Shown: positions 17,428 through 55,741 of the stretch, in pieces
Layout of the letters: each line of letters begins with the position of its first letter
Numbering within the stretch: position 1 is the stretch's first letter
Source of the DNA: Blastocatellia bacterium
GTDB taxonomy: Bacteria > Acidobacteriota > Blastocatellia > Pyrinomonadales > Pyrinomonadaceae
DNA length: 64,000 bases
Direction of reading: 5' to 3'
NCBI GenBank assembly: GCA_003168335.1
Contig: PMSM01000010.1
Location: forward strand, 905,588 to 969,587
Notes under the pieces: model-generated
What the model saw: only the letters and a program-made list of their open reading frames with translations
Databases searched by the model: none
What the model was told of the DNA's origin: nothing
Program-made: the position numbers and the translations under genes

Positions 17428-17570
17428 GAGTTCTCCACCTTTTCAAATCCGAGATTCGGCCGGCTCCAGGCAAGACTAGTCGGCACGGCAGTAAGGCACA
17501 CAGATTATCCGGATTACACAGATGCGAAATCCAGGAGAGCAGAAGACAAAAGAAGCGCCAAGGGCGCGGA

Positions 17571-17830
17571 ATGTAATAGCCTGGGCCAGCGGCCCAGGAA
17601 CGATAACGAGAGAAATCATTTGAGCTCTGAAGGAGCGGAATGAGTCCGTGAGGCGCGGGAATGTGAGGGACGATCTATTTCGCGCTTTCAGCGCTTGGAT
17701 CTTCTTGGGGGCATCGATCCTGGGGCGTTTGCCCCAGGCTATTACATTTCACGCCTTCAGCGTGAACACGCCTGCTACCTGCGGGTGGTATTGACCTCAC
17801 CCAACACAGAGACAATTAAAGCGCCTTCGG
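17571..17830. repeat. cluster of short palindromes
   Basis: Hairpins include gcctgggccagcggcccagg, cctggggcgtttgccccagg, cgccttcagcg and aagcgccttcggcgctt. Two carry the flank aatgtaatagcc or its inverse ggctattacatt, so pairs of these hairpins face each other. No gene is seen between 17428 and 18100. Confidence 0.6.
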
Positions 17831-18793: not shown

Positions 18794-18817
18794 AAGGGCG
18801 CGACTTAATTTGACGGT

Positions 18818-18888
18818 GTTTAGAGTACCAACTTTAGTTGGGCCCTCTGTCGATTGAGAAAAGCCCGACTGAAGTCGGTACTCTAAAC
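18818..18888. repeat. palindromic element with 12-bp inverted ends
   Basis: The 71-bp element starts gtttagagtacc and ends with the perfect inverse ggtactctaaac. Inside are two small hairpins (caactttagttg and ccgactgaagtcgg). This is the REPIN architecture of two REP units facing each other. It lies between two genes that may belong together. Confidence 0.7.
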
Positions 18889-18917
18889 GCCGTTTAGCTG
18901 AACTAGAACACCACCCA

Positions 18918-19322: not shown

Positions 19323-20285
19323 TCAACGCTTCACCACCGCCGCAAATCGCTCCAGCGGAATATTCCCGCCACTCAAAATGCCCACGACTTTCTTTCCCCG
19401 CAACTGATCGCGCAGCTTGATCGCTGCTGCGAGTGACGCAGCGCCGGCGCCTTCCGCTACTTGTTTTGCCTGCTGCGCGAGCAGGCGAACGGCTTCATTG
19501 ATCTCTTCATCGCTCACCAACACAAAATCATCGAGCAGCTCCCAGAGGATCCGGTTCGTCATTTCAAAAGGCACCCGCGTCGCCAGGCCTTCATGCTCGG
19601 TCTCCATCGTCGGATATGGATCCAAGGTGCGATTCCGCCAGGCGTGCCACAGGGCCGGCGCGCGTTCCGACTGCACTGCGATGACACGAGTGCGGGGGTT
19701 GATCTGTTTAGCAACGATGCAGTTGCCTGCGGCGCAACTCCCACCACCCGCGGCAGCGATGATTACATCGACGTCTGGCAGATCATCAAAGATCTCAAGA
19801 CCGATTGTGCCGACGCCCGCTATCAACTTCGGTTCATTCGCCGAATGAACATAGCGGTGGCCGTCCTGCCGTGCCAGGCGTTCTGCATCTATCCGTGCTT
19901 CATCGAAATCACGACCATGCAAACGGACTTCGGCACCCAGATCGCGCATGGCCTGCATCTTTGTCTGATTCACATTCTCAGCGGGCGCATAAATGATCAC
20001 TCTTGCTCCGAAGAGACGGCCCGCGTACGCGATCGATTGCCCATGATTGCCGGTGCTGGCTGAAACCAACCCCGCACGTTTTTCCTGGTCGGACGCGGTC
20101 CCAACCAGATTCACTCCGCCGCGCACCTTGAACGCGCCGACCGGTTGCAGGTTTTCTAACTTGGCGTAGTAATCACAGCCAAGCATTTCGGAAAGTTTCT
20201 CGACGGGCACGAGCGGTGTCCTGGGAAGATACTGACCTACAAAGTCCCGGGCCGTTAAGACGTCGTTGAAAGTTGGCGGAAGCAT
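19323..20285 (-). CDS. threonine dehydratase-like PLP enzyme
   Basis: The 320-residue product is a fold-type II PLP enzyme. The PLP lysine lies in GAFKVRGGVN, the substrate loop in SASTGNHGQSIAYAG, and the phosphate-binding glycine loop in AAGGGSCAAGNC. The order and length match the short biodegradative-type threonine/serine ammonia-lyase without an ACT domain. It would convert threonine to 2-oxobutyrate and ammonia. I chose the ATG at 20285 because the upstream frame lacks family features. A decayed copy of the region around this start lies at 20437-20510. Confidence 0.85.
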   Translation of the reverse strand: MLPPTFNDVLTARDFVGQYLPRTPLVPVEKLSEMLGCDYYAKLENLQPVGAFKVRGGVNLVGTASDQEKRAGLVSASTGNHGQSIAYAGRLFGARVIIYAPAENVNQTKMQAMRDLGAEVRLHGRDFDEARIDAERLARQDGHRYVHSANEPKLIAGVGTIGLEIFDDLPDVDVIIAAAGGGSCAAGNCIVAKQINPRTRVIAVQSERAPALWHAWRNRTLDPYPTMETEHEGLATRVPFEMTNRILWELLDDFVLVSDEEINEAVRLLAQQAKQVAEGAGAASLAAAIKLRDQLRGKKVVGILSGGNIPLERFAAVVKR

Positions 20286-20436
20286 TGGCGTAGTGTAACG
20301 CAGGCTGTCAGCATGCGCGCAAACTCCTGGACCCCGCCGGAGCAGCGCAGGCTCCCGGGCCGAGCATCTCGGCTGGGGTGCCAATCCCGTGCGGTGGCCT
20401 AAGAGTTTGCGTTGCGGATACCGGGATGAAACTCAT

Positions 20437-20510
20437 GGGCCGCTAGGATGTTGGGAGTTTGGCGGAAGCATTGGTTTGATCTAACGCAAGCTGTTAGCTT
20501 GCTCGCAAAC
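20437..20510 (-). repeat. diverged duplicate of the threonine dehydratase start region
   Basis: This segment matches 20249-20323 with roughly 80 percent identity by eye, including the core ttggcggaagcattgg. In the reverse strand it gives an ATG followed by only eleven sense codons before a stop. It looks like a tandem duplication of the gene's start and leader. Confidence 0.55.
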
Positions 20511-20585
20511 GAACAGTCCGCGTGACCGGAAATCGTCGAGCCTGGTTTGCTCTCCAGCGATCTGTCTCTATAATTGGGTCCGCGT

Positions 20586-20662
20586 GGCGGGGTAGCTCAG
20601 ATGGTTAGAGCGTGGGATTCATAACCCCAAGGTCGGCAGTTCGATCCTGCCCCCCGCTACCA
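20586..20662 (+). tRNA. tRNA-Met (anticodon CAT)
   Basis: A full cloverleaf can be drawn: acceptor ggcgggg/ccccgct with a G1:T72 wobble, D-stem gctc/gagc, anticodon loop ttCATaa, T-stem ggcag/ctgcc with loop ttcgatc, and an encoded CCA end. The anticodon stem has an A31-C39 mismatch. The paired first position suggests elongator methionine rather than initiator, though lysidine-modified tRNA-Ile cannot be excluded from the anticodon alone. Confidence 0.9.
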
Positions 20663-20815
20663 ACCTATCTCATAACTTTTCAAAGAGTTACCGTCACTTC
20701 CGTTCTCAGCCAATCCGCCGTTTTCCCGCCGATGACGTGAAAATGACGTGATTTCGGATCCTCAGCTTTTTGGCTGAATTCAACTACCTTGTTGCCCTTC
20801 AACGCTAGTTTGTTC

Positions 20816-20971
20816 ACAGCGTGAGAGACTCGACACTCACCACTTTGAAGGCCCCATCGACGGCTGGCTCGGATCGCACAAATCGACTCGTGCACGAGAC
20901 GGATTTAGATTTCAGTTCACGATCGAGGACATGACGGAACCACACCTTGTCGGCGCGGACTAATAGTACAC
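20816..20971 (+). repeat. left copy of a 156-bp perfect inverted duplication
   Basis: The 156 bp are identical to the reverse complement of 30617-30772. They contain the last 46 codons and the stop of the BNR gene at 30625-34314. Beyond 20971 about 60 bp remain recognisably similar but diverged. The two copies bracket the RHS island. Confidence 0.9.
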
Positions 20972-21313
20972 AGTCTACATGGATCGATTGGGTGGAGGTC
21001 ACAACCCGGAAGTCTCTAGAGATCTTGAAGGAATTAGGGGTGGATCTAGCAGGGGTTACATTCCCTCGCAATTGACCAGATTCGTAAGAAGAAATCTTAG
21101 TAGAAAATGATAGTTTATCGCTGCGGTTCGGCGCGTTAAAGAATGAGCAGCAATTTAAAGAACCGGCAATTGCCCACGCTCGATGAAAGGTTTCGCTTGC
21201 TTATGCCATTCTTGATGAAACAGAAATGTTGAAGTGGCGAAAGCCGAGGCGTCGAGAGTTCGTAACGACGTTACAGTCAACCATCGTTCAGGAAATCAAA
21301 GAAGGACGTCGGC

Positions 21314-21460
21314 ATGCGGAGATTCATGGTTGTTCTTGTCGTACTCTTTGCGGTGCATGTGCAACTGCACGCGCAATCGTGTCAGCTCACCCTACAGGAT
21401 TTGAAACAGAACCCTGGCGCTCCACCAACCGAAGTAAACACGAGCGGAATCGATCGTTGA
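21314..21460 (+). CDS. small exported peptide or gene stub (48 codons)
   Basis: The ATG at 21314 is preceded by gaaggacgtcggc, a fair ribosome binding site. The product begins with a clean signal peptide MRRFMVVLVVLFAVHVQLHAQ and continues only 27 residues (SCQLTLQDLKQNPGAPPTE...) to a stop. It may be a genuine short secreted peptide, but it reads more like the head of a longer exported protein whose body was lost. The flanking sequence from 21072 to 21313 and 21461 to 21853 shows no other supported gene. Confidence 0.4.
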   Translation: MRRFMVVLVVLFAVHVQLHAQSCQLTLQDLKQNPGAPPTEVNTSGIDR

Positions 21461-21853
21461 GGAGCTAGTTTCAAGCCTTCAACTAATCATGTTCAAACCA
21501 CAGAATCGCTAGGCAGCGATAGGGTTTTTCTCTTCTAACGCCTCAAAATCTAGATGCCACCTTTTCAGCGAATCCCTTGCAGCGTGCTTCGATGGCTTGC
21601 TGGCTGGCGCGGACGCGTTGTTTCTCATGCATCCATGGCCGTGCTCCCTCGAGCTGGACGCGGAGGACACTCTCCAAAAAAGCCCTTGACATTTCGTTCT
21701 ATCAAGCGTAGCGTGCGCGCATCCGTAGCATGTTCTTTGGCAACAAAGAGTAAAAACGCTATCTCCTAGAGCTTACGGTTTTCCGCACGCTCGCCAGTTA
21801 GCCTTGTTTTCAACCCAGCGCTTCTTGCAGAGTGCTTTACTAAGGGGACCCTC

Positions 21854-24800
21854 ATGTCTTCCACTAATCCATCCAGTTGGCCATGGTTAAGCCGCTCAGC
21901 CTCCATCGCGCTCGTTCTTTGTTTGTTATCAAGTTCGACACCGGCGGCGCCAGAGACGATTGTAGCTGTGGCAAAGGAATCGAGCGTCGGCTTCGCGTTC
22001 TGGTATCAGGGCAGCGGGCTTGCCAAATTGATTCAAGGAAACGGCACGGGTAATGCGAAGGCGCAGGAGAAGCAAGCAGACCGCGATGCGAAGGTCAGCC
22101 GCATTCAGATTTTTCCCGGCGACGTGACCGTCGATCTCAGCGACCCTGTGCGATTCTCGGCAGTCGCTTACGATCGTGATGGTGATCCTGTCGGTGGAGT
22201 CAAGATCAAATGGAGCGGTCACGGCGCAACGGCTCAAGCCCGGGTGCGCATCTCGCCGCACGGCGAGTTCGAGGCGACTACGCCGGGTTCATTCACGATT
22301 ACCGCGCAGGCGGGTGGGAAGACAGCGCAGGTAACCGTCACGGTGCGCGCCGGTCTCAAGCGAGATTTGAAAGCGACTCCGACTGGCACGCACGAGGTCT
22401 CGTCGCGCGACGTTTCTACTGCAAAGATTGCGTCTGTCAAGGAACAGAAAAAGTCTGAAGGCGGCGCCGGACTTCAATTCAAGAGAAGCAATCGGCAAGG
22501 CGGAAGCAGCGCCTCCAGACGAGCGCACGCTAGCACCGCAAAGGTTACGACTGCGCCAGATCCGATGCCACAGGGCGGAGGTGGCGGTTGGGGCGACAGC
22601 AACTACTGGTCGGCAGGCAGACCAGAGAATCGAGTCGCCGATCCGCCAGGCGCCACCGTCGATGGCGGCGCTGGCAGCGGCAATTTCCAGTTTGCTGCAC
22701 CGGTCGTGAGCATGCCGGGTCGAGGAGTCAACATTTCACTCGGCCTCGCCTACAACTCCCGACTCTGGAATAAGGCGAACTCGCAAATCAATTATGACAA
22801 CGATCGTGGCTGGCCAGCGCCAGGGTTCAATCTGGGTTTTGGGAAGCTGCTCGGCATGGGTGTTTACAATGGCGGCATGCTCGTCGATGCTGACGGCACT
22901 CGCCATAGTTATACCGGCAATATCACCTTTTACAATTGGGGCACCTATGGTGTCATGCATACCATTGATGGTTCGCTAATTGACTACACCTATTGGACCG
23001 GCACCGGTGGCGGCCTCGTATCGGCCCAAGTACGACTTCCGAATGGAACGGTCATCAATTATGGCGCGGCAGGTCCGGGCGCGATCTATCCGACTTTTAT
23101 CGAAGACCCCAACGGCAACTACATCAGCATCACCTATGTCAACAACGCGGGGCCGCGCATTCAAACCGTTACGGACACGCTGAACCGCACAATCAGTTTC
23201 TCGTACGACTACAACAATCTACTAACCGCGATCACCGCGCCGGGATATACTGGCGGCACCAGGACGGTGGTCAGGCTGCACTATCATCAACTCGCACTCA
23301 GCTACGGTTTCAGCGGGCTAACGCCTTCCGTCAGAGATTCCTATCCGTGGGTGGTTGACGCGATTTATTATCCGGGAACCAGCACGGGCTACTGGCTCAA
23401 CGATTCCGATTCATATTCGAGTTACGGCATGTTGGCCAAGGTCGTGGAAGAACGGGGCATGGGGTTCTCAGCTTCTTCCCTCAACGACATGGGCAGCGCC
23501 TCGCAAGGCGCGATCACGCGCCGCGAGACTTATAACTATCCACTCACGCCGGACTACAGTCTTACTGATGCGCCGACTTACCCGTCTGTGCTTGAAGAGT
23601 GGACGCGCGACGGGGTGAATTTCGATTCGGCGACCACCGGCTATGAAGTTCACGAAAATGACAATCCGCGCACCACAACCATCACGCTCCCGAACGGCAC
23701 GAAGAGCAAGCAATACTCTTACAACGCGTCGGGCCAATACAATGATGGACTCGTTTATCATGACGTGACCTACGTCAGTGATGAAAACAGCCCGCTGCAA
23801 AGCAGCAACTCCTACTGGGAGCAAGGCGCTTACAACACTCCGCGGCCCACGCGAGTTGAAAAGACTGATGAGCGTGGACAAACAACGGCCGCGGCGTTCA
23901 GTTACGGAAGCGTTTACAATCAAGTCACGGAGGTGCGCAACTACGACTATGGCGGCAGCTCGCTTCTGCGCGCGACGCGCACGACTTATCAGAACAGCAC
24001 GAATTACACGGGAACATGTTACAGCTCCGGCTGTGTTGGCCGTCACATCTTCAATCTGCCGTCAAGTGTCGAAGTGTATGCGGCCGATTATTCGACTCGC
24101 GTAGCGCGGACGGAATATCAGTATGACGGTCAGAGTCTCAGCGCAGCTCCCAACGTCGTCATGCACGATCAGGCAGCCAACCCGCACGCTGCGGACGAAG
24201 GGTTTTGCTACACGGATTATGACTGGAACGATGGAGACTGCACTGGCAGTTGCAATCAGAACTGCCCGGATTGCATTCAGGATCGAACTTGCGACGGCTA
24301 TTGCCCGCAGATTTATGTTTGTCCCTACGATTCGTCGACTGACTTCCGCGGCAACGTCACCCAGGTGACGAGTTATGCCGATGCCATCAATCTTGGGGGT
24401 GCAGTTACGGAAACCCGGCGTTATGACATCACCGGTAACCTGGTGACGGGGGCTACTTCGTCCGAGCAGACTAGTTTCAATTACTCGGTAGACACGCAAT
24501 ACACCCATCCGCTCTCGAAGACGCAAGGCTCGGCTACAGACGCTTACGCCCAAGTCACCACCAGCGCAACTTATGATTTCTATACGGGCCTGGGACTTTC
24601 GGCAACAGATGTCAATGGCCGGCAATCGCAAGCCAGTTACGATACAAACACGCTTCGCCCGACGACTTCGGTTTCGCCCACGGGAGCGCACACCGACTTT
24701 GCTTACGACGACGCGGCGATGACCGTCACTTCGACCACTTATCCGACCGCTGGCACTGGCGGCGCGATCGCCGATCAGAGCGTGAAGATGCTGAACGGTG

Positions 24801-27800
24801 CAGGCCAAGTGCGCGTCGAGAAGGCCCGCGGTCCGGACAGCGGCGGCAATCAAACCTGGGATGAAGTTGATACCATCTACAACAACCTCGGCCAGGTGTC
24901 TCAGCAGTCAAGGCCATATCGTGTCGGCACAGAAACGCCCGTGACGAGCACCGTGGCTTACGATGCGCTGGGCCGCACGGTTAGCGTAACTGCGCCCGAC
25001 GGCGGTGTGACGCAAACTTTCTACAACGAAGCAAGCCGGCCAAGTGTAGCGTCAAGCAGTCCGGGAGAGACTACGCGCATGCAAGACTCCTGGGGTCGCG
25101 AGCGTTGGGGGCGTACGGATGCGAGCGGGCGACTGGTAGAAGTTGTCGAACCCGATCCATCAGGTGGCGGTTCGGTCGCCAGCTATGGCTTGGTGACAAC
25201 TTACAGCTACAACACACTTGGGAATTTGACGCAGACGAACCAGGGTGCGCAGACGCGTTCGTTCAAGTACGATTCACTCGGAAGATTAAACGGGCAGAAG
25301 TTAGCTGAACAGAATGCCACGCTCAATGACGCCGGAACCTATGTTGGTTCCGGAACGTGGAGCGATGTTTTCACTTACGACGATCGTTCGAATCTCACCT
25401 CGCGCACCGATGCGCGCGGCGTCAAGACTGTTTACACCTATAGCAGCGATCCGCTCAATCGCCTCCAATCCGTTTCGTGGGACACGAGCGGCTTTGGCGA
25501 TACGGCAAATCCGATTCTGTCGGCTGCGACTGTGAGTTATCAGTATCGTACCAAAGCAAGCCCGTCCGATTTGACAGATGTGACCCAACTCGCCAGTGTT
25601 ACCGCTTCAGGCGTGAGTACGGAAACCTATGCATTCGACACCGAAGCACGAGTCAGTTCAAAGACATTGACCTTGACCAGCCGTCCGTACTACCCAATGG
25701 TCACTGACTACACTTTCGATACGCTGGATCGCGTCACCGATGTGCGCTATCCGGCGGAGTATGGAAACGGGAGCGCGCCGCGCAAGGTCGTGCACCATGA
25801 CTATGACATCGCGAGCCGTTTGAGCGGTCTGACTTACGATAGTCAATCGTTTGCTTCAAGCATCGTCTACAACGCGGCCAGCCAGACGACTTCGCTCAGC
25901 GTGGGCACGGCCACGAATCAAGTTAATGAGAGCTACACCTACAACGCGCAAACCGGTTTGCTCGACAGTCAGTCCGCTACACGCGGAAGCACGCCACTGC
26001 TCAATCTCTCTTACGATTATACGAACTCAAGTGGCAAGCGCACGGGCCAGCTGACCAAGATTAGCAACAATCAGGATCACAACAAGGATCGCGGTTACGA
26101 ATACGATGCACTTGGCAGATTACAACGGGCTACCGGCGGGCAGAACGTCAACTGGGTGCAGCGCTACAACTATGATAGCTATGGCAATCGCTCCGACGTC
26201 TGGTCCTACACGGGGGATCAGTATGTAAAGAATTTATATCAGAGCGCCTTGAATCGGCAGCCGAACTCGACCGAGTTGCAAACCGCGCTCAGTAGTCTGC
26301 AGAGCGCCTACTCCCAGGGACAGTCTGCGTTTCTCACAGCGATGCAGGGCATAGGCGAAACGGTGTTCGGCGGGTCAGAGTATGCAGGTCGCAATCGTTC
26401 AAATCACGACTACGTTTACGACCTCTACAAAGCCTATCTCTATCGCGAGCCGGATGCAGGCGGCTGGGCCGCCTGGGAAGCGGCGCTTAATAACGGCAGC
26501 AGTCGCGCGGATGTGCGCAGCGGCTTCGCCTGGAGCGCAGAGTTTCAATTAAAGATCAAGGGCGTCAGTCCTTACGCGCCGCCGAACAACGGAGTGGTGC
26601 CGCCTGACGGCTTAACTGCGCTTGGATTCGACAGCGCTTCGAATCGGATTAACTCATCGGGCTTTGCGTACGACGCCGCCGGCAATCAAACGCGTGCATT
26701 AATTCCTGGCAGCACCACAATCTCGCAACGCTTTCAGTACGACGCTGCGAATCGTATGGTGAAGGTCAAGGCTGATGACAACTCGACGGTGTTGACGAGT
26801 TATACGTATGGCAGTTCCAATGAAAGATTGATGGCGGAAGAAGGAAGCCTCAGAACCTACTACGATTGCGAAGGCGGCTCGACTGTCGCCGAGTACATAG
26901 AGAGCGGTGGTTCGACGACTCCTGCATGGTCGAAGAGTTATTTGTACCTCGACGAGCGCTTGCTTTCAACACTCACTCCAAATGGAAGCGGCGGTGAAGC
27001 AGTTCAATATCATCATCCGGATCGATTGGGTACGCGTCTAGTCACCGATCCTTCAAGTGGAAGTTCATTCGAGCAGGTAGCGCTACCTTTTGGCACTGCG
27101 TTGGAATCCGAATCGTCTGGCCAAACGAATAGAAGATTCACTTCTTACGACCGCAGCACAACGACAAAACTCGATTACGCGGTCAATCGCCATTACGACT
27201 CGCAACAGGGACGATTCACTCAGGTCGATCCAGCAGGGATGAGCGCCACAAGTCTAGAGAGTCCGCAGACGCTCAACCTGTACGCTTACTGCGCCAACGA
27301 TCCGATCAATCAAACTGACCCAAGCGGCCTGGGCTTCTTTAGCTTCTTAAAGAAAGTCTTCAAGTGGGTTGTTGTGGCAGTCACGGTCGTTGTCGCTGTA
27401 CTAACCATAATTTACACTGGCCAAATCTGGGCCGCCGTAGGCTGGGTCAAGATGGCGCTTGGACTCATTGCGGCTGTCGCTAACGCAGCCTCGTCAGTCC
27501 TCACCGCCTTAGGCGTGAAAACAGCCGGAATGATTTTCGACATCATAGCGGCGGGCGCTAGTTTTGGTATCTCACTTGCCAATATTGCCGGTCACGCTCT
27601 GGAAAAAGTGAAGACCATCTTCAAAGCAATTCAGGACGGAGCTACACTAGCCAGCAAGACACTTACCGCCCTCGGGCACAAAATGGCCGGGCAAATCTTC
27701 GACCTTGTTAGCACCGTGGCAGGATTCATCTCAAGCGAGATCTCCAAAACAGCCGTGCCAGATCCCAAACATAAAGGGGAGTTCATCCACGAATGGAAGT

Positions 27801-28090
27801 TCAAGAAATGGGACATCTACAAATTCGTGAGAGCAGTAATCGAGAAGGGTGCAAATCTGGCCGGCGCGGAAAGGCTGAGCGGGTTCGTAAATGTGCTGGG
27901 TCTCGTTGACGACACGGGTGATATTATTATGGGGATTCAGAGCTTCGGAAATGCGGCTAAAGGCGGACCGCTCTCCAAGAGTCCAGGGATTCCTCGGTGG
28001 GCCGGCTGGTTTGAAAGGAGCTTACCGCTACTCAAGAAGGTCAACACCGCATTCGGGAGAATTGATAAAGCCGTCGCGCTGGCGCACTAA
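21854..28090 (+). CDS. exported RHS/YD-repeat protein with DUF4214 insert and C-terminal tip
   Basis: The 2078-residue product begins with a signal peptide (residues 1-32) and an Ig-like Big domain (about 81-165: IQIFPGDVTVDLSDPVRFSAVAYDRDG...). YD repeats run from about 260 onward, with many GxTxxxxYDxxGR-type units. Two insertions are notable: a cysteine-rich patch (8 Cys within about 40 residues, nt 24207-24330) and a DUF4214-like domain (residues about 1455-1575: LYQSALNRQPN...YLYREPDAGGWAAWEAAL...). The RHS core ends with NLYAYCANDPINQTDPSGLG near residue 1825. A 250-residue tip follows, with strong hydrophobic helices and a doubled unit (TALGVKTAGMIFDI / TALGHKMAGQIFDL). In such proteins the core is a shell around a variable C-terminal toxin or effector; the tip's activity is not recognised. 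Confidence 0.85.
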   Translation: MSSTNPSSWPWLSRSASIALVLCLLSSSTPAAPETIVAVAKESSVGFAFWYQGSGLAKLIQGNGTGNAKAQEKQADRDAKVSRIQIFPGDVTVDLSDPVRFSAVAYDRDGDPVGGVKIKWSGHGATAQARVRISPHGEFEATTPGSFTITAQAGGKTAQVTVTVRAGLKRDLKATPTGTHEVSSRDVSTAKIASVKEQKKSEGGAGLQFKRSNRQGGSSASRRAHASTAKVTTAPDPMPQGGGGGWGDSNYWSAGRPENRVADPPGATVDGGAGSGNFQFAAPVVSMPGRGVNISLGLAYNSRLWNKANSQINYDNDRGWPAPGFNLGFGKLLGMGVYNGGMLVDADGTRHSYTGNITFYNWGTYGVMHTIDGSLIDYTYWTGTGGGLVSAQVRLPNGTVINYGAAGPGAIYPTFIEDPNGNYISITYVNNAGPRIQTVTDTLNRTISFSYDYNNLLTAITAPGYTGGTRTVVRLHYHQLALSYGFSGLTPSVRDSYPWVVDAIYYPGTSTGYWLNDSDSYSSYGMLAKVVEERGMGFSASSLNDMGSASQGAITRRETYNYPLTPDYSLTDAPTYPSVLEEWTRDGVNFDSATTGYEVHENDNPRTTTITLPNGTKSKQYSYNASGQYNDGLVYHDVTYVSDENSPLQSSNSYWEQGAYNTPRPTRVEKTDERGQTTAAAFSYGSVYNQVTEVRNYDYGGSSLLRATRTTYQNSTNYTGTCYSSGCVGRHIFNLPSSVEVYAADYSTRVARTEYQYDGQSLSAAPNVVMHDQAANPHAADEGFCYTDYDWNDGDCTGSCNQNCPDCIQDRTCDGYCPQIYVCPYDSSTDFRGNVTQVTSYADAINLGGAVTETRRYDITGNLVTGATSSEQTSFNYSVDTQYTHPLSKTQGSATDAYAQVTTSATYDFYTGLGLSATDVNGRQSQASYDTNTLRPTTSVSPTGAHTDFAYDDAAMTVTSTTYPTAGTGGAIADQSVKMLNGAGQVRVEKARGPDSGGNQTWDEVDTIYNNLGQVSQQSRPYRVGTETPVTSTVAYDALGRTVSVTAPDGGVTQTFYNEASRPSVASSSPGETTRMQDSWGRERWGRTDASGRLVEVVEPDPSGGGSVASYGLVTTYSYNTLGNLTQTNQGAQTRSFKYDSLGRLNGQKLAEQNATLNDAGTYVGSGTWSDVFTYDDRSNLTSRTDARGVKTVYTYSSDPLNRLQSVSWDTSGFGDTANPILSAATVSYQYRTKASPSDLTDVTQLASVTASGVSTETYAFDTEARVSSKTLTLTSRPYYPMVTDYTFDTLDRVTDVRYPAEYGNGSAPRKVVHHDYDIASRLSGLTYDSQSFASSIVYNAASQTTSLSVGTATNQVNESYTYNAQTGLLDSQSATRGSTPLLNLSYDYTNSSGKRTGQLTKISNNQDHNKDRGYEYDALGRLQRATGGQNVNWVQRYNYDSYGNRSDVWSYTGDQYVKNLYQSALNRQPNSTELQTALSSLQSAYSQGQSAFLTAMQGIGETVFGGSEYAGRNRSNHDYVYDLYKAYLYREPDAGGWAAWEAALNNGSSRADVRSGFAWSAEFQLKIKGVSPYAPPNNGVVPPDGLTALGFDSASNRINSSGFAYDAAGNQTRALIPGSTTISQRFQYDAANRMVKVKADDNSTVLTSYTYGSSNERLMAEEGSLRTYYDCEGGSTVAEYIESGGSTTPAWSKSYLYLDERLLSTLTPNGSGGEAVQYHHPDRLGTRLVTDPSSGSSFEQVALPFGTALESESSGQTNRRFTSYDRSTTTKLDYAVNRHYDSQQGRFTQVDPAGMSATSLESPQTLNLYAYCANDPINQTDPSGLGFFSFLKKVFKWVVVAVTVVVAVLTIIYTGQIWAAVGWVKMALGLIAAVANAASSVLTALGVKTAGMIFDIIAAGASFGISLANIAGHALEKVKTIFKAIQDGATLASKTLTALGHKMAGQIFDLVSTVAGFISSEISKTAVPDPKHKGEFIHEWKFKKWDIYKFVRAVIEKGANLAGAERLSGFVNVLGLVDDTGDIIMGIQSFGNAAKGGPLSKSPGIPRWAGWFERSLPLLKKVNTAFGRIDKAVALAH

Positions 28091-28186
28091 CAAGTCTTAT
28101 CCGATTGCTCCGGAACAGCGAACGATCTCTTTGGATTGGAAGATATTTGCAGTTTCGTCGTTTGAGCGAGAGCGAAGGAGATCGCT

Positions 28187-28882
28187 ATGAAAACAATCGC
28201 ACTGTTGCTAGCTGGGTTCCTTTCGATTTTGAGCGCAGGGACGACCCTTGCTCAGAGTAAGCCGAAGCTTCCGCCTCAGCTGAACAAGGGTTCATCGCTA
28301 TCAGAAATCGTGGACTGGCTGGACAAGAACAGTTTCTCCCATGCACGGATTGGTCTGGAGTCTGACGGTCCTAATCTCGATCCAATGGAATCAATGATGT
28401 TTACGATTTCCGAGGGGCTGGTCTTCTCTTCCGGATTCAGGCTGGTTAAAGTCGACGGCTGTCGTTTAACTCTCAGGAATGATGAAGTAAAGGTGCTCAG
28501 CGGGTGGACGAATCGTACCGATAGCAACGAAATGAGTCTTGCCAATTTCGTGTGGGGTGGAAAGAAGGGAGAAAAGAAACTAACACCGCACTCAGCCGTC
28601 TTGTTCATCCCGCTCGACAAGATGCGTTACGGCAAGAAGCCCTATCAACATACTAAGAACCTGGAGCAAGCTAAATTGCTCGGAACGTGGCGGACTAAAT
28701 TCAAAGAGAAAGGGTTCTTTAAACGGTTTGTCTTTCAAATGGAGATCACCGCCGTTGAAGACCCTGAACTGAAGGGCAAGATGAAGGCTGGGACGCTGAC
28801 CTTTACGTTTGATGACAAGGCGATGAGCGAGCAGTTCAACGCAGCCTTCCGGCAAGCCATTAAGTTTTGTTCCTCGAAATAA
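28187..28882 (+). CDS. exported protein of unknown function downstream of RHS tip (candidate immunity or accessory)
   Basis: The 231-residue product has a signal peptide (residues 1-22, ending TLAQ) and no recognised domain. A GAAGGAGA motif sits 8 bp before the ATG. Residues 60-190 look like a mixed alpha/beta domain with C89 and a C-terminal cysteine. It lies 96 bp after the RHS stop, the position where cognate immunity genes of polymorphic toxins sit, and a decayed second copy of the RHS tip lies right after it. The immunity idea is inference from place alone; export would fit a toxin acting in the periplasm or membrane. Confidence 0.55.
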   Translation: MKTIALLLAGFLSILSAGTTLAQSKPKLPPQLNKGSSLSEIVDWLDKNSFSHARIGLESDGPNLDPMESMMFTISEGLVFSSGFRLVKVDGCRLTLRNDEVKVLSGWTNRTDSNEMSLANFVWGGKKGEKKLTPHSAVLFIPLDKMRYGKKPYQHTKNLEQAKLLGTWRTKFKEKGFFKRFVFQMEITAVEDPELKGKMKAGTLTFTFDDKAMSEQFNAAFRQAIKFCSSK

Positions 28883-28884
28883 GT

Positions 28885-29201
28885 AGCCGCGCGAAGACCT
28901 ACAAGTTCATCCGACGAACGGCCGAGAAAATTGCCAATCTTGCCGGCGCGAAAAGAGTGGGCGGGTTTCCTGAATGTGCTGGGTCTCGTTGACGACGCCG
29001 GTGATATTTATTTCGGCCTCAGGAGCATCGGCCAAATGGGTCAAGGACCATCCGTCGGTCCGGTCAACGCACCAATCCCTCTTGCCCAAATTTTTTTCAG
29101 GACCGAAGGGGGGGATTCCTGGCGACCTAGAAAGGATCTTGCCACTAATCAAAAAGGTCAACATTGCATTTGGGCGGATCGACACGACGATTACTTTGGC
29201 A
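28885..29201 (+). pseudogene. orphan, frameshifted copy of the RHS C-terminal tip
   Basis: Read in three successive frames, the segment matches the last 90 residues of the RHS protein: KTYKFIRRTAEKIANLAGAKRVGGF, then FLNVLGLVDDAGDIYFGLRSIG, then LPLIKKVNIAFGRIDTTITLA. Corresponding parent residues are IYKFVRAVIEKGANLAGAERLSGF, FVNVLGLVDDTGDIIMGIQSFG and LPLLKKVNTAFGRIDKAVALA. Two single-base-type shifts (near 28970 and in the t/g runs near 29095-29115) break it. This is the classic 'orphan tip' arrangement of polymorphic toxin loci, here decayed. A MITE-like element abuts its end. Confidence 0.85.
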
Positions 29202-29320
29202 GGTATTGTCAACTTAAGGTAAATATCACGGATCTTAGTACTTCATGTTGGGGACTGGTCCCTTCTGAGTGCCACAAATGGTGTCCATTTTCCCGGATCT
29301 TCACTTAAGTTGACAATACC
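29202..29320. mobile_element. MITE-like element with 17-bp perfect inverted ends
   Basis: The 119-bp element begins ggtattgtcaacttaag and ends with its exact inverse cttaagttgacaatacc. The same terminal sequence is at the ends of the two IS6-type transposase remnants (44189 and 55455). It has no transposase and is best explained as an internally deleted derivative. No clear target duplication is seen. Confidence 0.85.
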
Positions 29321-29473
29321 GTGATGCGAGCACGTTCCCCGATGATTCTGGCTGTAGCTGTAAGTACCGTCGCGGCATCTTGCGGTTGCGCCGGCTAGGG
29401 CCGAGCGGATTACTGGGCTAGGTGACGATTTAGCGGTCCAGAGATCGTTGTCTTCGTAAGCGACTCCGATGGG

Positions 29474-30382
29474 TTAAGGGGATAATCCTATTGACTGTCT
29501 TAGCGCTATATTGACATCGCTGTCGTTCTTGAAAAACTCCATCAAAAACGGATCGAGTAGAACAACCCTGGATCGGAGTCCAAATGCGCGCGGCCAATAC
29601 GTTTCCCATATATCGTCGATGTCGCATTGTGCACGATGGCATTTCCAAGATAGCCATGCAATCAGACCGAGGAAAATCAATTCTATAGTTAGGAGCTCCC
29701 AGTTATCCGTAAAGGAGAACAGTCTCAAAATCAGAACTGTGTAATAGTCATAAGCAACTCCTACAGAAAAGATCACGACCGGTAGTAGGTAGACTAATTT
29801 TGGCGCGATTCTCAATAATCGTCCTGTTATCTGATTTCGCATGCTTGGAACGGTGAATACTTGGTGCATCGCCAGTGCGTGATAGAAGGGATACAGTTTC
29901 TCGTGTTGGGTGGCTTCCCTAAATGAGAACGTTAAGTTTCTAATCTCACTAGAAAGGCAAAACCTCAATAGTACTAGAACTGCGATCAGGGATCCGCCCC
30001 CTATGAGGCCCAAGTCATTAATATCAAATGCAATCCCAAAAAAAGGCGCGCGAATGAAGTAAGTGTTATCAATATACGATCTTACCAAGGCCTTTTGGAA
30101 TTCCTCCCGAAACTCATCCTGTGGGATCTTTTCATGAATTTTGACCTGAAAGGCGGGGTTCATTTCCGGATTGAGCTTCTTTTCGACGAAGGTTGAATAG
30201 GGGTTGTAGGCGGCGCGAATTCGCTGGAGCATCCAAGCATTGTTGAGCGAATTATAAAACCCAGTGAAGACGAGTACGCAAGCCACCACTAAAACTATTA
30301 CCACCCATCGAGTCCGCTTGGCGGACTGCTCGCAAGCGTCAACATATTCCTTTACGTTGAATCGGGAGTGTGAAATATTCAT
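29474..30382 (-). CDS. membrane protein of unknown function
   Basis: The 302-residue product has an N-terminal helix (WVVIVLVVACVLVFTGFY), a soluble stretch of about 75 residues, then helices around IGGGSLIAVLVLLRFCL, LVYLLPVVIFSVGVAY and LLTIELIFLGLIAWLSW. The tail (QCDIDDIWETYWP...) is cytoplasmic-looking. No family is recognised. It is less GC-rich than its neighbours, in line with a foreign origin within the RHS island. Its place next to the orphan tip allows a membrane immunity role, but it is on the other strand and this is speculation. Confidence 0.6.
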   Translation of the reverse strand: MNISHSRFNVKEYVDACEQSAKRTRWVVIVLVVACVLVFTGFYNSLNNAWMLQRIRAAYNPYSTFVEKKLNPEMNPAFQVKIHEKIPQDEFREEFQKALVRSYIDNTYFIRAPFFGIAFDINDLGLIGGGSLIAVLVLLRFCLSSEIRNLTFSFREATQHEKLYPFYHALAMHQVFTVPSMRNQITGRLLRIAPKLVYLLPVVIFSVGVAYDYYTVLILRLFSFTDNWELLTIELIFLGLIAWLSWKCHRAQCDIDDIWETYWPRAFGLRSRVVLLDPFLMEFFKNDSDVNIALRQSIGLSP

Positions 30383-30616
30383 CGAGTTCCCCGTGGGTAA
30401 GTTCCTCGTCGGCCAGGTCCCCGAGTATCTTCAATCTTACAAAAGCAAACAGTTTTGCCACCACATCTGCGCAGCTGGGAAGCGTGCTGTTCGATTCATT
30501 CAGTCCTTAATCGTTTTTCATGCCCCCCTTTTGCCCTCGTAACCCTTCCCCTGTAGGTCTACCGATAACCAGGATCTCTGGGGGTGTGGGCCTCCCTAAC
30601 GCGATCCATGGAAACG

Positions 30617-30772
30617 GTGTACTATTAGTCCGCGCCGACAAGGTGTGGTTCCGTCATGTCCTCGATCGTGAACTGAAATCTAAATCCGTCTCGTGCACGA
30701 GTCGATTTGTGCGATCCGAGCCAGCCGTCGATGGGGCCTTCAAAGTGGTGAGTGTCGAGTCTCTCACGCTGT
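30617..30772 (-). repeat. right copy of the 156-bp perfect inverted duplication
   Basis: This copy is the real 3' end of the BNR gene plus 8 bp past its stop codon. It is identical to 20816-20971 in reverse orientation. Sequence outside on the gene side (towards 30780) has no counterpart at 20815, so the left copy is the partial, derived one. Confidence 0.9.
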
Positions 30773-33700
30773 TCGGACACCTCAAGCCGCTCAGCTTCCA
30801 TGAGTTCAAGCATCAACGATTCGCCATCCGCAAGATAACCGTCGAACAAGCATGGCGCTATCGCGCCAGCACGCATTAGATCACCAAGCGGTCGAAGCAC
30901 GATTCGGTCGGGGTTTGCAGCAATCGTTACCTGCGCCCAGAGCATCGTGCGTTCCTGGTCCCTTTCCTTCTCACCGAACTGGAGATGATCCGCAACGATT
31001 CGGATCCGGCGTACGCGTGGTGCCGTTGGGCTACCCGCTCCGTCGTATCCAATCTGAAACGTACTTCCACCGATCGAGACGCCATCGATCCTTTGCTCTA
31101 TGGAAATTCGTGGCGCGACTGGCGTGGGCACGTCGCGCTTGTGCGAGCACACCAATGCGCCCCGCAACGTTTGGCCAGGGTCCAGGCGGATTCCAGCGAG
31201 CCGCGACACCTGAGTTGAACTGAATCTCCAGAGGTAGCTGCGGTCCAAGCCCTCCCAGCGAGCGCTCAACTGTTTCTCGTTCGCATTTTTGCCGCGTAGA
31301 TACCACTTGGCGATCGGATCATCGGGCGATAACGGAATTCGTTCGACGCCAACTGATTCCGATTTGGTTTTGGCAAACTCGAGCTTCGGCAAAAGCAAGC
31401 CGATCATTCCTCGGTCAAACAGAGACGGACGGATGATGATCTCGGCAACAGCACGACGCTTGCCGCCGTTGTTAAAGTCGATGCCGACCATCGTCATACC
31501 GGCAGGAGCCGGGCCTGGATCTATTACGTGCAGGTTCTTGAGGCAGGCACGTTTGTCACCCGTGACGAGCGTACCAATGTCGGTTGCTGTATTCGTAAAG
31601 GGATCATCCGCCGACGATACGACAGCGAGACAGCAGGTGTGCGTGGCTGTCGACGCTGGGAGGTTGAAATCCCAGGTAACGATCACCGGCCGGTTGGGAA
31701 CCAGCTGCGGGATCATCTGTGCCGGACCGACCGGAGTCCAGACTGCCGCGCTCGAAAGATTGAAATTGGGTGGAACCAGCGCGTTCGGCAAGGGCGGTAG
31801 TCCAGCTGATGCATCGGCGACGAACGCGCGTACCCAGACATTGGAAGTAGACTGCCAGCCACGGTTGTGTACTTGCAAATAGAAGCGGTTAGTTTCTGTC
31901 CGGTGGGGATCCTGATGCACGAGGCTGATATCGAAGTCCACGCCGTCAAAGACGGTGCCGCTCGGCGTGAAAAACGGCGCGTGATTCACTTTGATGTCCG
32001 GGCTCATCCACCACTGGGCCAGCGCGGGGGCAGGAACCAACGGATCAGGCAGACCGGAAGGCGAAGGCAGATGCTCGCCGGTGTCGAGATCGTCGTCGCG
32101 CAAGTACAGATCGACCTGCGGCTTGGTGATGCCTGGCGTGATGTCGAGCTTGTAAGCCCCACGTCCGAAGGTCCCGGCATAAAGCATCTTCAAGGTTGGG
32201 TCGACCGCCAGATCAGCAACGGGCACATTGGGAATGCCATTATCAAATGGCAGCCAGTGGGTGCCGCTGTCCGTGGTTCGGTAGACGCCGCCATCGGTAG
32301 CAAGGTAATAAGTCGTGGCACTGCTGGGGTCGCCGACGACGGCGTTCGCTGTGATCGTCGGCAGGTCTCCGCTCACGTTCGTCCAAGAAGTTCCGCCGTT
32401 TGTGCTGTGATAAACGGATTGAGCCGCGGGACTGCCCGGGCCGCCCGTGCTAAGTAGCCCGCCAACACTAATCAGTATATTGTCAGCGTTGGCGGGATCG
32501 ACCCAGATGCTGCTTACCGGGCGGGAAGGAAGACCGGTAGACTTGTCGGCCCACGGCGAAGTATTCCCGCCATCATCGCTGCGATAGACATGACCGCCTG
32601 TAGTTCCCGCGTAAACGCGATTGGAATTGGAAGCTGCGACCGCAATCGCGCTTACCTCCCCGACGAGGGTCTGACTGACCGTGGTCCAGGCTGTACTGCA
32701 GCCATCGAGCGTGCGCAGAACAACGCTGGTGCCGTAGTAGAGTCGAAGATGATCGTTGGGATCCATCGTCAGGATCCCTTCCCAGTTCGCCGACCCGCTA
32801 ATTCCGGAAGTCACTGCCGTCCAGGTCGCACCACCGTCAGTGCTCTTGGCAACGTAAGCACCCTGTCCCTCAGCATACATCGTACGGGGATCACTAAAGT
32901 CGATCACGAACCAACCGCCATCGTTAGTCCACACCGGCCGCCATGTCAGGCCACTGGTAGTGTAATTCGTGGCGTTGTCCTGGGCGCCGCCGCCGATTAC
33001 ATTGCTGAGCGTTCGCCAGAAGCCAATATTGTAGAACTGCGTGATAACGAGACCGTTGCTGACTTTGCGCACGCCTGCGCCTTTGTTGTCAGACCGCCAC
33101 ACCCCGCCGTCGTTCGCGAAGTAGATGATATTCGAGTTCGATGGCGCAAAGGTCGCCGCGTGTTGATCAGAGTGAACGGGCAAACCCGACCATGTGGTGC
33201 CGCCATCGGTTGAGCGCTCGAGCCCTACGCCGCCGTAAAAAATGATCGTCTCATCATCAGGCGCGCAGCCGATCACATCGCACCAGCCGAAGTAACCCCC
33301 GTGTCCGGTCGAGACGGTTGTGAAGGTCGTCCCGCCATTGATACTCGTCGCAACCGTGCCGCCCATCTTGATCACAAGAAAGTTGTGGCCATGGGTTCCC
33401 GATGTGCCGATAGCGATCTGCGGAAAGGTCACTCCAGCACCGGTCGGCGAACCAGCCAAAAGAGTAAACGTCGCACCCGAATCAGTTGATTTGAAAAATC
33501 CGTTCCCAGCAACTCCTATGAACAGCGTGGACGCACTTGCCGGATCAAGAACTATGTCGGAAACCGTGTCCGCTCTCAGGTGCGTCCATGTTGTGCCGCC
33601 GTCGTCTGTACGCTCGAGACCAGAGTCGCCACATATCCATACTCGCAGCGGGTTTCCGGGGTCGACAATGAGCTTGCCTATGCGCCGGCAGAGACATGAG

Positions 33701-34314
33701 TTGCGCAATGACCAGGTACCGCCTCCATTGGTAGAAACATACACGCCCGCGCCTGGGTAACTCGGTCCCCAACCCGGCGTCCATTCGCCCGTGCCCGCAT
33801 AGACTGTCTGAGGACTCGATGCCGCGATCCCGATCGCACCGACAGCAAGCGACTCTTGCATGTCCCATTGCGGGTCCCATGTTTGACCACCATCTACACT
33901 CTTCCAGACTCCACCGCTTGCAGCACCCGCATAGACGATATCGGGGTTCGTCGGATGTACTGCCAGCGCCTTCACCCGGCCATTCACGTTACGCGGACCT
34001 ATCGGGAACCACGGCGAGCCGGCCCCGGCGGGATCATAGCCGGCCAGGGCGCCAGAATCCCTGCCTTCCTCTTCGATCAGCCGTAGCTTGTGAATGAACG
34101 CGAGGTCTCGCGCTTCAATGAGAGCCTTCTCGTCTGCCGAACGTGAGAGAGTAAACCACCGGCGACGCCAGTCGAACGACGAACTCCGCTGAGAGAGAAG
34201 TAGCTCCACCGCGCGCTCGGGTTGGCGGTAGACCTTGCCGTTTGTGCGCTTGGTACGTTTCGTGTCCTTCTTTGCGCGAGTATTCTTGGTTCCTGGTTTG
34301 TCGGATTTCTTCAT
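30625..34314 (-). CDS. large BNR/VPS10-type beta-propeller protein
   Basis: The product has 1229 residues from the ATG at 34314, which has AAAGGAGC 8 bases upstream. It begins with a very basic, signal-less tail (KKSDKPGTKNTRAKKDTKR...). Asp-box propeller units follow: SVDGGQTWD, STNGGGTWS, TDDGGTTWT, STDSGATFT, STDGGTTWSG, STDGGATWTA, SDDGGNTSPW, STNGGTSWTN and TTDSGTHWLP. Past residue 700 lie Ig-like or CARDB-like beta domains (DLYLRDDDLDTGE..., YLQVHNRGWQSTSNVWVRAFVAD). It probably binds surface or extracellular ligands; no catalytic residues are recognised. How a protein with this N-terminus would leave the cell is unclear. Its 3' end is duplicated at 20816. Confidence 0.8.
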   Translation of the reverse strand: MKKSDKPGTKNTRAKKDTKRTKRTNGKVYRQPERAVELLLSQRSSSFDWRRRWFTLSRSADEKALIEARDLAFIHKLRLIEEEGRDSGALAGYDPAGAGSPWFPIGPRNVNGRVKALAVHPTNPDIVYAGAASGGVWKSVDGGQTWDPQWDMQESLAVGAIGIAASSPQTVYAGTGEWTPGWGPSYPGAGVYVSTNGGGTWSLRNSCLCRRIGKLIVDPGNPLRVWICGDSGLERTDDGGTTWTHLRADTVSDIVLDPASASTLFIGVAGNGFFKSTDSGATFTLLAGSPTGAGVTFPQIAIGTSGTHGHNFLVIKMGGTVATSINGGTTFTTVSTGHGGYFGWCDVIGCAPDDETIIFYGGVGLERSTDGGTTWSGLPVHSDQHAATFAPSNSNIIYFANDGGVWRSDNKGAGVRKVSNGLVITQFYNIGFWRTLSNVIGGGAQDNATNYTTSGLTWRPVWTNDGGWFVIDFSDPRTMYAEGQGAYVAKSTDGGATWTAVTSGISGSANWEGILTMDPNDHLRLYYGTSVVLRTLDGCSTAWTTVSQTLVGEVSAIAVAASNSNRVYAGTTGGHVYRSDDGGNTSPWADKSTGLPSRPVSSIWVDPANADNILISVGGLLSTGGPGSPAAQSVYHSTNGGTSWTNVSGDLPTITANAVVGDPSSATTYYLATDGGVYRTTDSGTHWLPFDNGIPNVPVADLAVDPTLKMLYAGTFGRGAYKLDITPGITKPQVDLYLRDDDLDTGEHLPSPSGLPDPLVPAPALAQWWMSPDIKVNHAPFFTPSGTVFDGVDFDISLVHQDPHRTETNRFYLQVHNRGWQSTSNVWVRAFVADASAGLPPLPNALVPPNFNLSSAAVWTPVGPAQMIPQLVPNRPVIVTWDFNLPASTATHTCCLAVVSSADDPFTNTATDIGTLVTGDKRACLKNLHVIDPGPAPAGMTMVGIDFNNGGKRRAVAEIIIRPSLFDRGMIGLLLPKLEFAKTKSESVGVERIPLSPDDPIAKWYLRGKNANEKQLSARWEGLDRSYLWRFSSTQVSRLAGIRLDPGQTLRGALVCSHKRDVPTPVAPRISIEQRIDGVSIGGSTFQIGYDGAGSPTAPRVRRIRIVADHLQFGEKERDQERTMLWAQVTIAANPDRIVLRPLGDLMRAGAIAPCLFDGYLADGESLMLELMEAERLEVSEQRERLDTHHFEGPIDGWLGSHKSTRARDGFRFQFTIEDMTEPHLVGAD

Positions 34315-34349
34315 GATGAGAGCTCCTTTTGGGCTTGTCCGCAATCCGC

Positions 34350-44069: not shown

Positions 44070-44188
44070 CGATTTAGGCGATATGTTGGTAGATGGATCG
44101 CCAACTGCATTGCGGATTGCAAACAAATCAGAGCTGAGAGGACGTCGGATGATCGGAGATTCTGCACCGTCGCTAGTGGGGGAAAGGA

Positions 44189-44682
44189 GGTATTGTCAAC
44201 TTAACTTCAGAAGAAACAAAATCAGGTACTCAGACAGGTTGAATCCACCTTCGTCATTTCATTAATTAACTGTCCCAACGACGCAAGTCGTCTCTTTCCA
44301 TACGGCGAATCTCGACTTCATTACTTCTCGGTAACCGCTCGCTCGGTACAGATGTCTCCCCACCCGGAAGTGTGAGGTAATGATTCCGAGGGCCGCGAGA
44401 AAGCGCTGCGCCTGACCGGCTGATTTGAACCGCCTCATCACCCTCTCTCGCAATCTGGTCGGCTGATGTGAATTCTCCGCTCGGTTGTTCTGATACTTCT
44501 GCCGGCGGTGCTCCACACCCGGCATCACCTCAGCCTTCGCCGCACTGTAGCTCTTTAGCTTGTCTGAAATGATCACACGCGGGACATAGCGCAATCCCTT
44601 CAATAGCCTGCGAAAGAACTTCTTGGCAGCGTTCTTATCTCTTCGGCTTTGGACCAGGATATCCAGCACATCCCCATCCTGA
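44189..44682 (-). mobile_element. truncated IS6-type insertion sequence (3' end)
   Basis: The right-hand end is the terminal sequence ggtattgtcaacttaa (44189-44204), shared with 55455 and with the MITE at 29202. The inner part encodes the C-terminal transposase half. The 5' half and the other end are missing. The break falls at about 44682, where a beheaded resolvase begins in the opposite direction. Confidence 0.8.
44262..44682 (-). pseudogene. IS6-family transposase, C-terminal half
   Basis: The frame reads QDGDVLDILVQSRRDKNAAKKFFRRLLKGL...VIISDKLKSYSAAKAEV...NNRAENSHQPTRLRERVMRRFKS, the DDE catalytic half of an IS6/IS240-like transposase. The second acidic residue lies in ISDK and the final glutamate in RAENSH. 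The first catalytic aspartate and the N-terminal HTH are gone. The protein would be inactive. Confidence 0.85.
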
Positions 44683-44684
44683 CA

Positions 44685-45128
44685 GGCACGCGGCTGCAGC
44701 GACCAGAGTTTGACCGCTTACAGGGCGATATCTTCGCCGGCAAGGTCAAGACTGTAATCATCTGGAAGCTGGATCGTTTGAGTCGCAACCTGCGTGATGG
44801 CGTCAACGTCCTGGCTGACTGGGCGGAGAAGGGGTTGAAGATCATAGTTGTGACGCAGCAACTCGAACTAAACGGCGTGATCGGCCGCACCATCGCTGCG
44901 TTATTGCTAGGTCTGGCTGAAATCGAGCACGGCAACATAAGGGAACGTCAGAAGGCAGGTATCGAGGCGGCCAAGGCTCGAGGCGTGTATACCGGACGAA
45001 CAGTCGGCAGCACTAAGGCGAACCCTGGGAGGGCACGGGAGTTGAAGAGGAAGGGGCTCAGTATGAACGAGATCGCTACCGCTCTCGGCGTAAGCACGCG
45101 CACAGTAACGCGCTATTTGGGTTCCTGA
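44685..45128 (+). pseudogene. serine recombinase/resolvase lacking its N-terminus
   Basis: The frame from 44685 reads LTGTRLQRPEFDRLQGDIFAGKVKTVIIWKLDRLSRNLRDG, the resolvase catalytic domain after the active-site serine, then ELNGVIGRTIAALLLGLAEIEHGNIRERQKAGIEAAK and a C-terminal HTH (KGLSMNEIATALGVSTRTVTRYLGS). The usual first 45 residues with YARVST are missing. An ATG at 44649 exists but its first codons lie in IS6 sequence. The site looks like a fusion of two mobile-element relics. Confidence 0.8.
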
Positions 45129-55454: not shown

Positions 55455-55741
55455 GGTATTGTCAACTTAAACTGATGAGGAAACACAACCACCATGTCAG
55501 ATTAGATCAACCCATACTTCCTCATCTTATCGATCGACGATCTCCTGCTTCAAGCTGGTGCTTGAGCCGCAATCACCTCTTCCCAAGTCATGAACCTCGA
55601 CCTCATCACTGCTCGGTAACCGCTAGCTCTATACAAATGTCTTCCCACTCGGAAGTGTGAGGTAATGATTCCGAAGGCCGAGAAAAAACGCTGCGCGTGG
55701 CCCGATGACTTGAACCGTCTCATCACCTTCTCTCGAACTTA
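55455..55741 (-). mobile_element. IS6-type insertion sequence remnant (3' end)
   Basis: Starts with the terminal sequence ggtattgtcaacttaa at 55455-55470. In reverse it encodes the last 45 or so residues of the transposase, homologous to 44330-44470 (for example ggaagtgtgaggtaatgatt is shared). The remainder is gone and the break abuts a beta-hydroxyacid dehydrogenase fragment at 55742. Confidence 0.85.

What the first reader, a model, noticed from the sequence alone, without database searches (positions are those of the whole stretch)
20816..30772. Perfect 156-bp inverted duplication bracketing the RHS island
The last codons and stop of the BNR gene exist twice in opposite orientation, 9.6 kb apart, with 100 percent identity, while the flanking 60 bp are only similar. 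The identity implies a very recent event or gene conversion. Inverted repeats of this kind would let the whole RHS island flip by homologous recombination, or may record how it was inserted next to the tRNA.
Basis: seen in the sequence. Interest (0 to 1): 0.7.

Follow-up and report, generated by a model that had tools for sequence, protein, structure and literature searches.

The report
Stray inverted copy of gene end
The last 49 codons of one large gene were copied once, backwards, to a spot 9.6 kb away; it looks like a one-off DNA-copying accident rather than a working genetic switch or the edge of a mobile island.

Summary
Window 20816-20971 is the exact reverse complement of 30617-30772 (156/156). 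The arms enclose 9,645 bp. The right arm is the last 49 codons, stop and a few bases of an intact 1,239-aa BNR/VPS10-type beta-propeller gene. The left arm is a headless fragment of it 154 bp past tRNA-Met. It has no third copy in its own genome and none in 60 relatives. In 684.6 kb of the chromosome it is the only repeat over 50 bp with at least 97% identity.

Identity ends abruptly. On the stop-codon side there is an 11/15 microhomology (9 exact); on the other side none. That fits a single microhomology-primed, inverted template switch or templated repair that dropped 156 bp of the gene's end at the left site. A staggered-break inversion with duplication is the main rival. RecA-mediated flipping is possible, but would change no coding sequence, and no recombinase or site points to a switch. 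The tRNA is intact and its end is not repeated. Synteny with the nearest relative is lost before the tRNA and does not resume at the right arm, so the arms do not mark island borders. 'Very recent' means only less than about 1.9% divergence. An ordinary structural scar.

The parts
20816..20971 (+). Left arm: headless copy of the 3' end of the BNR gene (last 49 codons in frame, stop TAA, 8 bp beyond)
   Evidence: 156/156 identical to the reverse complement of 30617-30772; upstream frame has stops and no BNR homology
30617..30772 (-). Right arm: native 3' end of the BNR gene plus 8 bp
   Evidence: in frame with the 1239-aa ORF
20972..20986 (+). Left microhomology, 11/15 with an exact CATGGATCG
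   Evidence: 1.25e-5 of random aligned pairs are as good
30602..30616 (-). Right partner of the microhomology, just downstream of the BNR stop
30625..34344 (-). 1239-aa BNR/VPS10-type beta-propeller protein with a C-terminal extension; presumed source gene
   Evidence: Pfam Sortilin-Vps10 1.8e-20 and PSII_BNR 4.3e-9; NCBIfam F510_1955 below cut-off
20586..20662 (+). tRNA-Met (CAU), intact, not duplicated
   Evidence: ARAGORN; repeat scan
21854..28090 (+). 2078-aa RHS-repeat protein lying between the arms
   Evidence: Pfam RHS_repeat, DUF4214; Rhs_assc_core 2.5e-16
29474..30382 (-). 302-aa predicted membrane protein between the arms, patchily distributed in the family
   Evidence: Sequence; homologues in 5 other genomes of the family, none in the genus

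Best explanation
A single, non-reciprocal inverted duplication. A broken or stalled 3' end at the left site, 154 bp past tRNA-Met, annealed at a roughly 15-bp imperfect microhomology just downstream of the BNR stop (30602-30616). DNA synthesis copied 156 bp of the gene's 3' end (30617 towards 30772), and the new end was then joined to the tRNA flank at 20815|20816 with no homology. The result is a dead gene fragment that happens to form an inverted repeat around the RHS region. The identity, boundaries and one-sided microhomology are shown; the copying mechanism and its direction are inferred.
For: The arms are 156/156 identical with abrupt ends. The four differences in the 171-bp match all lie in the outer 15 bp (chance 4e-5 if uniform), so those 15 bp were not part of the same copied block. 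The 15-bp microhomology (11/15, 9-bp run) has a frequency of 1.25e-5 among random pairs, against none on the other side. The right arm completes an intact 1239-aa ORF while the left arm's frame is closed just upstream. It is a singleton: no third copy and no copy in 60 relatives. There is precedent: E. coli amplification events include inverted template switches with junction microhomology of 3-30 bp (PMC3161906).
Against: No ancestor-like genome without the copy is held; the nearest genome differs too much at this locus. The direction of copying (BNR to left) rests on the intact ORF only: the last ~137 residues of the BNR protein have no homologue to prove that they are ancestral. The microhomology is mismatched near the would-be primer's 3' end.
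Confidence: 0.6

Rival explanations
1. Inversion with duplication (staggered break, or 'DNA duplication associated with inversion'): the 9.6-kb segment was inverted once, and the 156 bp at its BNR end was filled in and so ended up at both ends in opposite orientation.
For: The layout A-X-S-X'-B is exactly what this model gives. It is documented in bacteria: Helicobacter and Thermus cases are cited in PMC8963470 and PMC4671568.
Against: It does not by itself explain the microhomology between the two inner flanks. It needs two breaks and an inversion where one copying event suffices.
Confidence: 0.22
2. Invertible switch: the arms let the RHS region flip regularly, with a selected function.
For: Long perfect arms, inverted, on the same contig. 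A truncated serine-recombinase ORF lies 14 kb to the right (44649-45128).
Against: The arms are coding sequence with no special folding (z = +1.4). The stop lies inside the arm, so flipping changes no protein. No promoter-like site was found near the left arm. The recombinase ORF matches the resolvase domain only from position 43 and adjoins what looks like an IS remnant. No relative carries the arms.
Confidence: 0.06
3. Gene conversion between two older, diverged copies of the same gene end.
For: There is weak similarity beyond the exact block on one side.
Against: Similarity past the first 15 bp is not distinguishable from random pairs (432/2000), and there is none on the other side. No other homologue exists in the genome.
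Confidence: 0.06
4. Assembly artefact.
For: Reads cannot be inspected here.
Against: Four different flanks, an imperfect microhomology junction, and a 985-kb contig that runs through both arms. A fold-back chimera would not give 156-bp arms 9.6 kb apart.
Confidence: 0.04
5. Template/variable repeat pair of a diversity-generating retroelement (a copy of a gene's 3' end with a mismatched short element just past it).
For: The placement at a gene's 3' end, with a mismatched 15-bp tract beyond it, superficially resembles the TR/VR and IMH layout.
Against: No A-specific substitutions in 156 bp. No reverse transcriptase over the Pfam cut-off in the genome; one sub-threshold hit lies on another contig.
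Confidence: 0.01

Closest known systems
Microhomology-mediated inverted template switching (E. coli lac amplification, PMC3161906)
   Same: Inverted copy of nearby sequence, with microhomology of 3-30 bp at the junctions
   Different: The embedded duplications there are 5-43 kb and selected by amplification; this one is 156 bp, fixed in an assembly, with microhomology at one junction only
DNA duplication associated with inversion (H. pylori, Thermus; cited in PMC8963470, PMC4671568)
   Same: A gene-end fragment duplicated in opposite orientation at both ends of a segment
   Different: No relative here shows the segment in the other orientation, so an inversion cannot be demonstrated
Invertons / phase-variable inversions (PMC5903667, PMC4272514)
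   Same: A segment bracketed by inverted repeats
   Different: Arms are coding sequence, longer and further apart than typical recombinase sites (own knowledge), with no adjacent intact invertase and no promoter or gene fusion changed by a flip

Membership tests
Invertible DNA switch (inverton) | Inverted repeats bracketing a segment | tested here: met
Invertible DNA switch (inverton) | Both orientations present in the population | not testable with these tools
   No reads available
Invertible DNA switch (inverton) | Flip changes a promoter or a coding sequence | tested here: not met
   The BNR stop lies inside the arm and the RHS gene lies wholly inside the segment with 0.87 kb upstream; no promoter-like site at 20500-21900
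Invertible DNA switch (inverton) | Dedicated recombinase nearby | tested here: not met
   None between the arms; the only recombinase-like ORF noted, at 44649-45128, lacks the first 42 positions of the resolvase domain
Genomic island at a tRNA | Repeat of the tRNA 3' end at the far border | tested here: not met
   No match of 14 bp or more elsewhere in the window
Genomic island at a tRNA | Integrase | tested here: not met
   No integrase family found among the ORFs scanned between the arms
Diversity-generating retroelement | A-specific differences between template and variable repeat | tested here: not met
   0 differences in 156 bp
Diversity-generating retroelement | Adjacent reverse transcriptase | tested here: not met
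   Only one sub-threshold RVT_1 hit in the genome, on another contig
DNA duplication associated with inversion | Same fragment at both ends of a segment in opposite orientation | tested here: met
DNA duplication associated with inversion | A relative with the segment in the other orientation and one copy | tested here: inconclusive
   No relative examined carries the segment or the arms
Microhomology-mediated templated duplication | Short homology at a junction | tested here: met
   11/15 at one junction, none at the other

The most novel reading that the evidence does not exclude
The RHS segment flips at appreciable frequency by recombination between the 156-bp arms, giving two chromosomal orientations of a polymorphic-toxin-type gene, for instance relative to replication direction.
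Probability: 0.06. Interest if true: 0.45.

Novelty: new member of a known kind. Interest (0 to 1): 0.15.

Why it matters
It is a clean, datable scar of an inverted copying event in a bacterial chromosome otherwise almost free of near-identical repeats. It shows how a gene end can be scattered and how substrates for later inversions arise. It is a caution against reading every perfect inverted repeat as a switch or an island border.

Tried and rejected
Diversity-generating retroelement: no A-specific changes and no RT over the cut-off. tRNA-targeted island: no repeated tRNA end, no integrase. Arms as element ends with a special fold: DNA folding z = +1.4. Dating or polarising the event through homologues of the C-terminal extension: no true homologue in 162 genomes of the class, 396 of the phylum, genome contigs, viral contigs, plasmids or PDB sequences; the G401 hit proved to lie in an unrelated protein. 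Structure prediction of the C-terminal 262 residues was uninformative (pLDDT 34). Use of the genus relative G005 to find the empty site: synteny breaks before the tRNA.

Full report
Observation. The inverted repeat is real. Bases 20816-20971 equal the reverse complement of 30617-30772 at 156 of 156 positions; the unbroken BLAST match is 171 bp at 98%. The distance between the arms is 9,645 bp. The right arm starts inside codon 1191 of the 1239-aa ORF 30625-34344 (-) and contains its stop and eight more bases. The left copy keeps the same reading frame to the stop, but that frame is closed by a stop codon shortly upstream and shows no BNR homology there.

Is it exceptional? Neither arm has a third copy in the 5.16-Mb genome, and none of the other genomes in a set of 60 relatives carries it. 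In 684,560 bp of the same contig it is the only repeat over 50 bp with 97% identity or more. The next best are a 347-bp pair at 95%, a 199-bp tandem at 94% and older dispersed elements. So it is not background noise.

Surroundings. Left: a PLP-dependent enzyme gene (19323-20384, -) and an intact tRNA-Met. Between the arms: a 2078-aa RHS protein, a small secreted-looking protein, a second RHS-tip-like stretch and a 302-aa predicted membrane protein. Right: the BNR/VPS10-type beta-propeller gene. The nearest genome (G005, same genus) is collinear for parts of 10.1-20.4 kb and then stops: no gene from 21.8 to about 45 kb is found in its neighbouring 80 kb, and its matching tRNA lies about 20 kb from its PLP gene on the same contig. 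The synteny break therefore lies left of the arms and does not end at the right arm. The arms are not the borders of a discrete insertion as far as these genomes can tell.

Boundaries. The block ends abruptly. If the 171-bp match were one block, finding all four mismatches within its outer 15 bp would have a probability of 4e-5. Those 15 bp (11 matches, nine in a row: CATGGATCG) are better read as a microhomology that was there before the event; 1.25e-5 of random aligned pairs do as well. Beyond them the similarity is not distinguishable from chance (432 of 2000 random pairs), and at the other junction there is none.

Mechanism (inferred). One-sided microhomology, a faithful short copy and a junction without homology are what a microhomology-primed inverted template switch, or templated repair of a break, would leave. 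E. coli work describes inverted template switches with junction microhomology of 3-30 bp (PMC3161906). The main rival is inversion of the 9.6-kb segment with duplication of its end, known from Helicobacter and Thermus (PMC8963470, PMC4671568). Both leave the same layout; only a close relative could separate them. I favour the copy because it needs no inversion and uses the microhomology. That the BNR gene is the donor is inferred from its intact frame. Its nearest homologue (G020) ends about 137 residues before the BNR C-terminus, and no homologue of the extension was found anywhere searched.

Could it flip? RecA-dependent recombination between 156-bp arms is feasible (own knowledge). A flip would leave the BNR protein unchanged, because the stop is inside the arm, and would carry the RHS gene with its own upstream region. 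No promoter-like site lies at 20500-21900, no recombinase gene lies between the arms, and the one recombinase-like ORF noted, 14 kb away, lacks the start of its catalytic domain. There is no positive evidence of a switch.

Age. Zero differences in 156 bp bound the divergence below 1.9% at 95%. That is recent on the scale of the genus but not necessarily 'very recent'.

Verdict. A true, non-random feature; an ordinary structural scar; low interest.

Noticed in passing
window 29202-29320: 119-bp MITE-like element with perfect 17-bp terminal inverted repeats (GGTATTGTCAACTTAAG), inside or beside the orphan RHS-tip stretch; related 16-17-bp ends recur at about 44188 and 55455. No obvious target-site duplication.
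   Followed up: partly
window 27881-27963 and 28964-29046: The C-terminal end of the RHS gene recurs at 73% identity about 1.08 kb downstream, suggesting a displaced (orphan) RHS tip.
   Followed up: no
window 44188-45128: A serine-recombinase ORF truncated at its N-terminus adjoins, on the other strand, what looks like a transposase remnant of IS6 type (recognised by eye, not tested); part of the remnant recurs at 55592-55735, 85% identical.
   Followed up: partly
window 45265, 47622, 48199, 49646, 58118, 59101, 63065: Two families of 70-90-bp repeats flank the genes of this stretch, with motifs such as GCCCAAC, GTTGGGC and GAATTCGTTCAAGC that recall integron attC sites; could be a cassette-like array.
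   Followed up: no
window 20273-20324 and 20459-20510: Direct 52-bp repeat (83%) with a hairpin-like core just upstream of tRNA-Met.
   Followed up: no
window 18814-18892 and about 17552-17767: Members of dispersed, often palindromic 45-95-bp repeat families found along the contig (REP/BIME-like).
   Followed up: no
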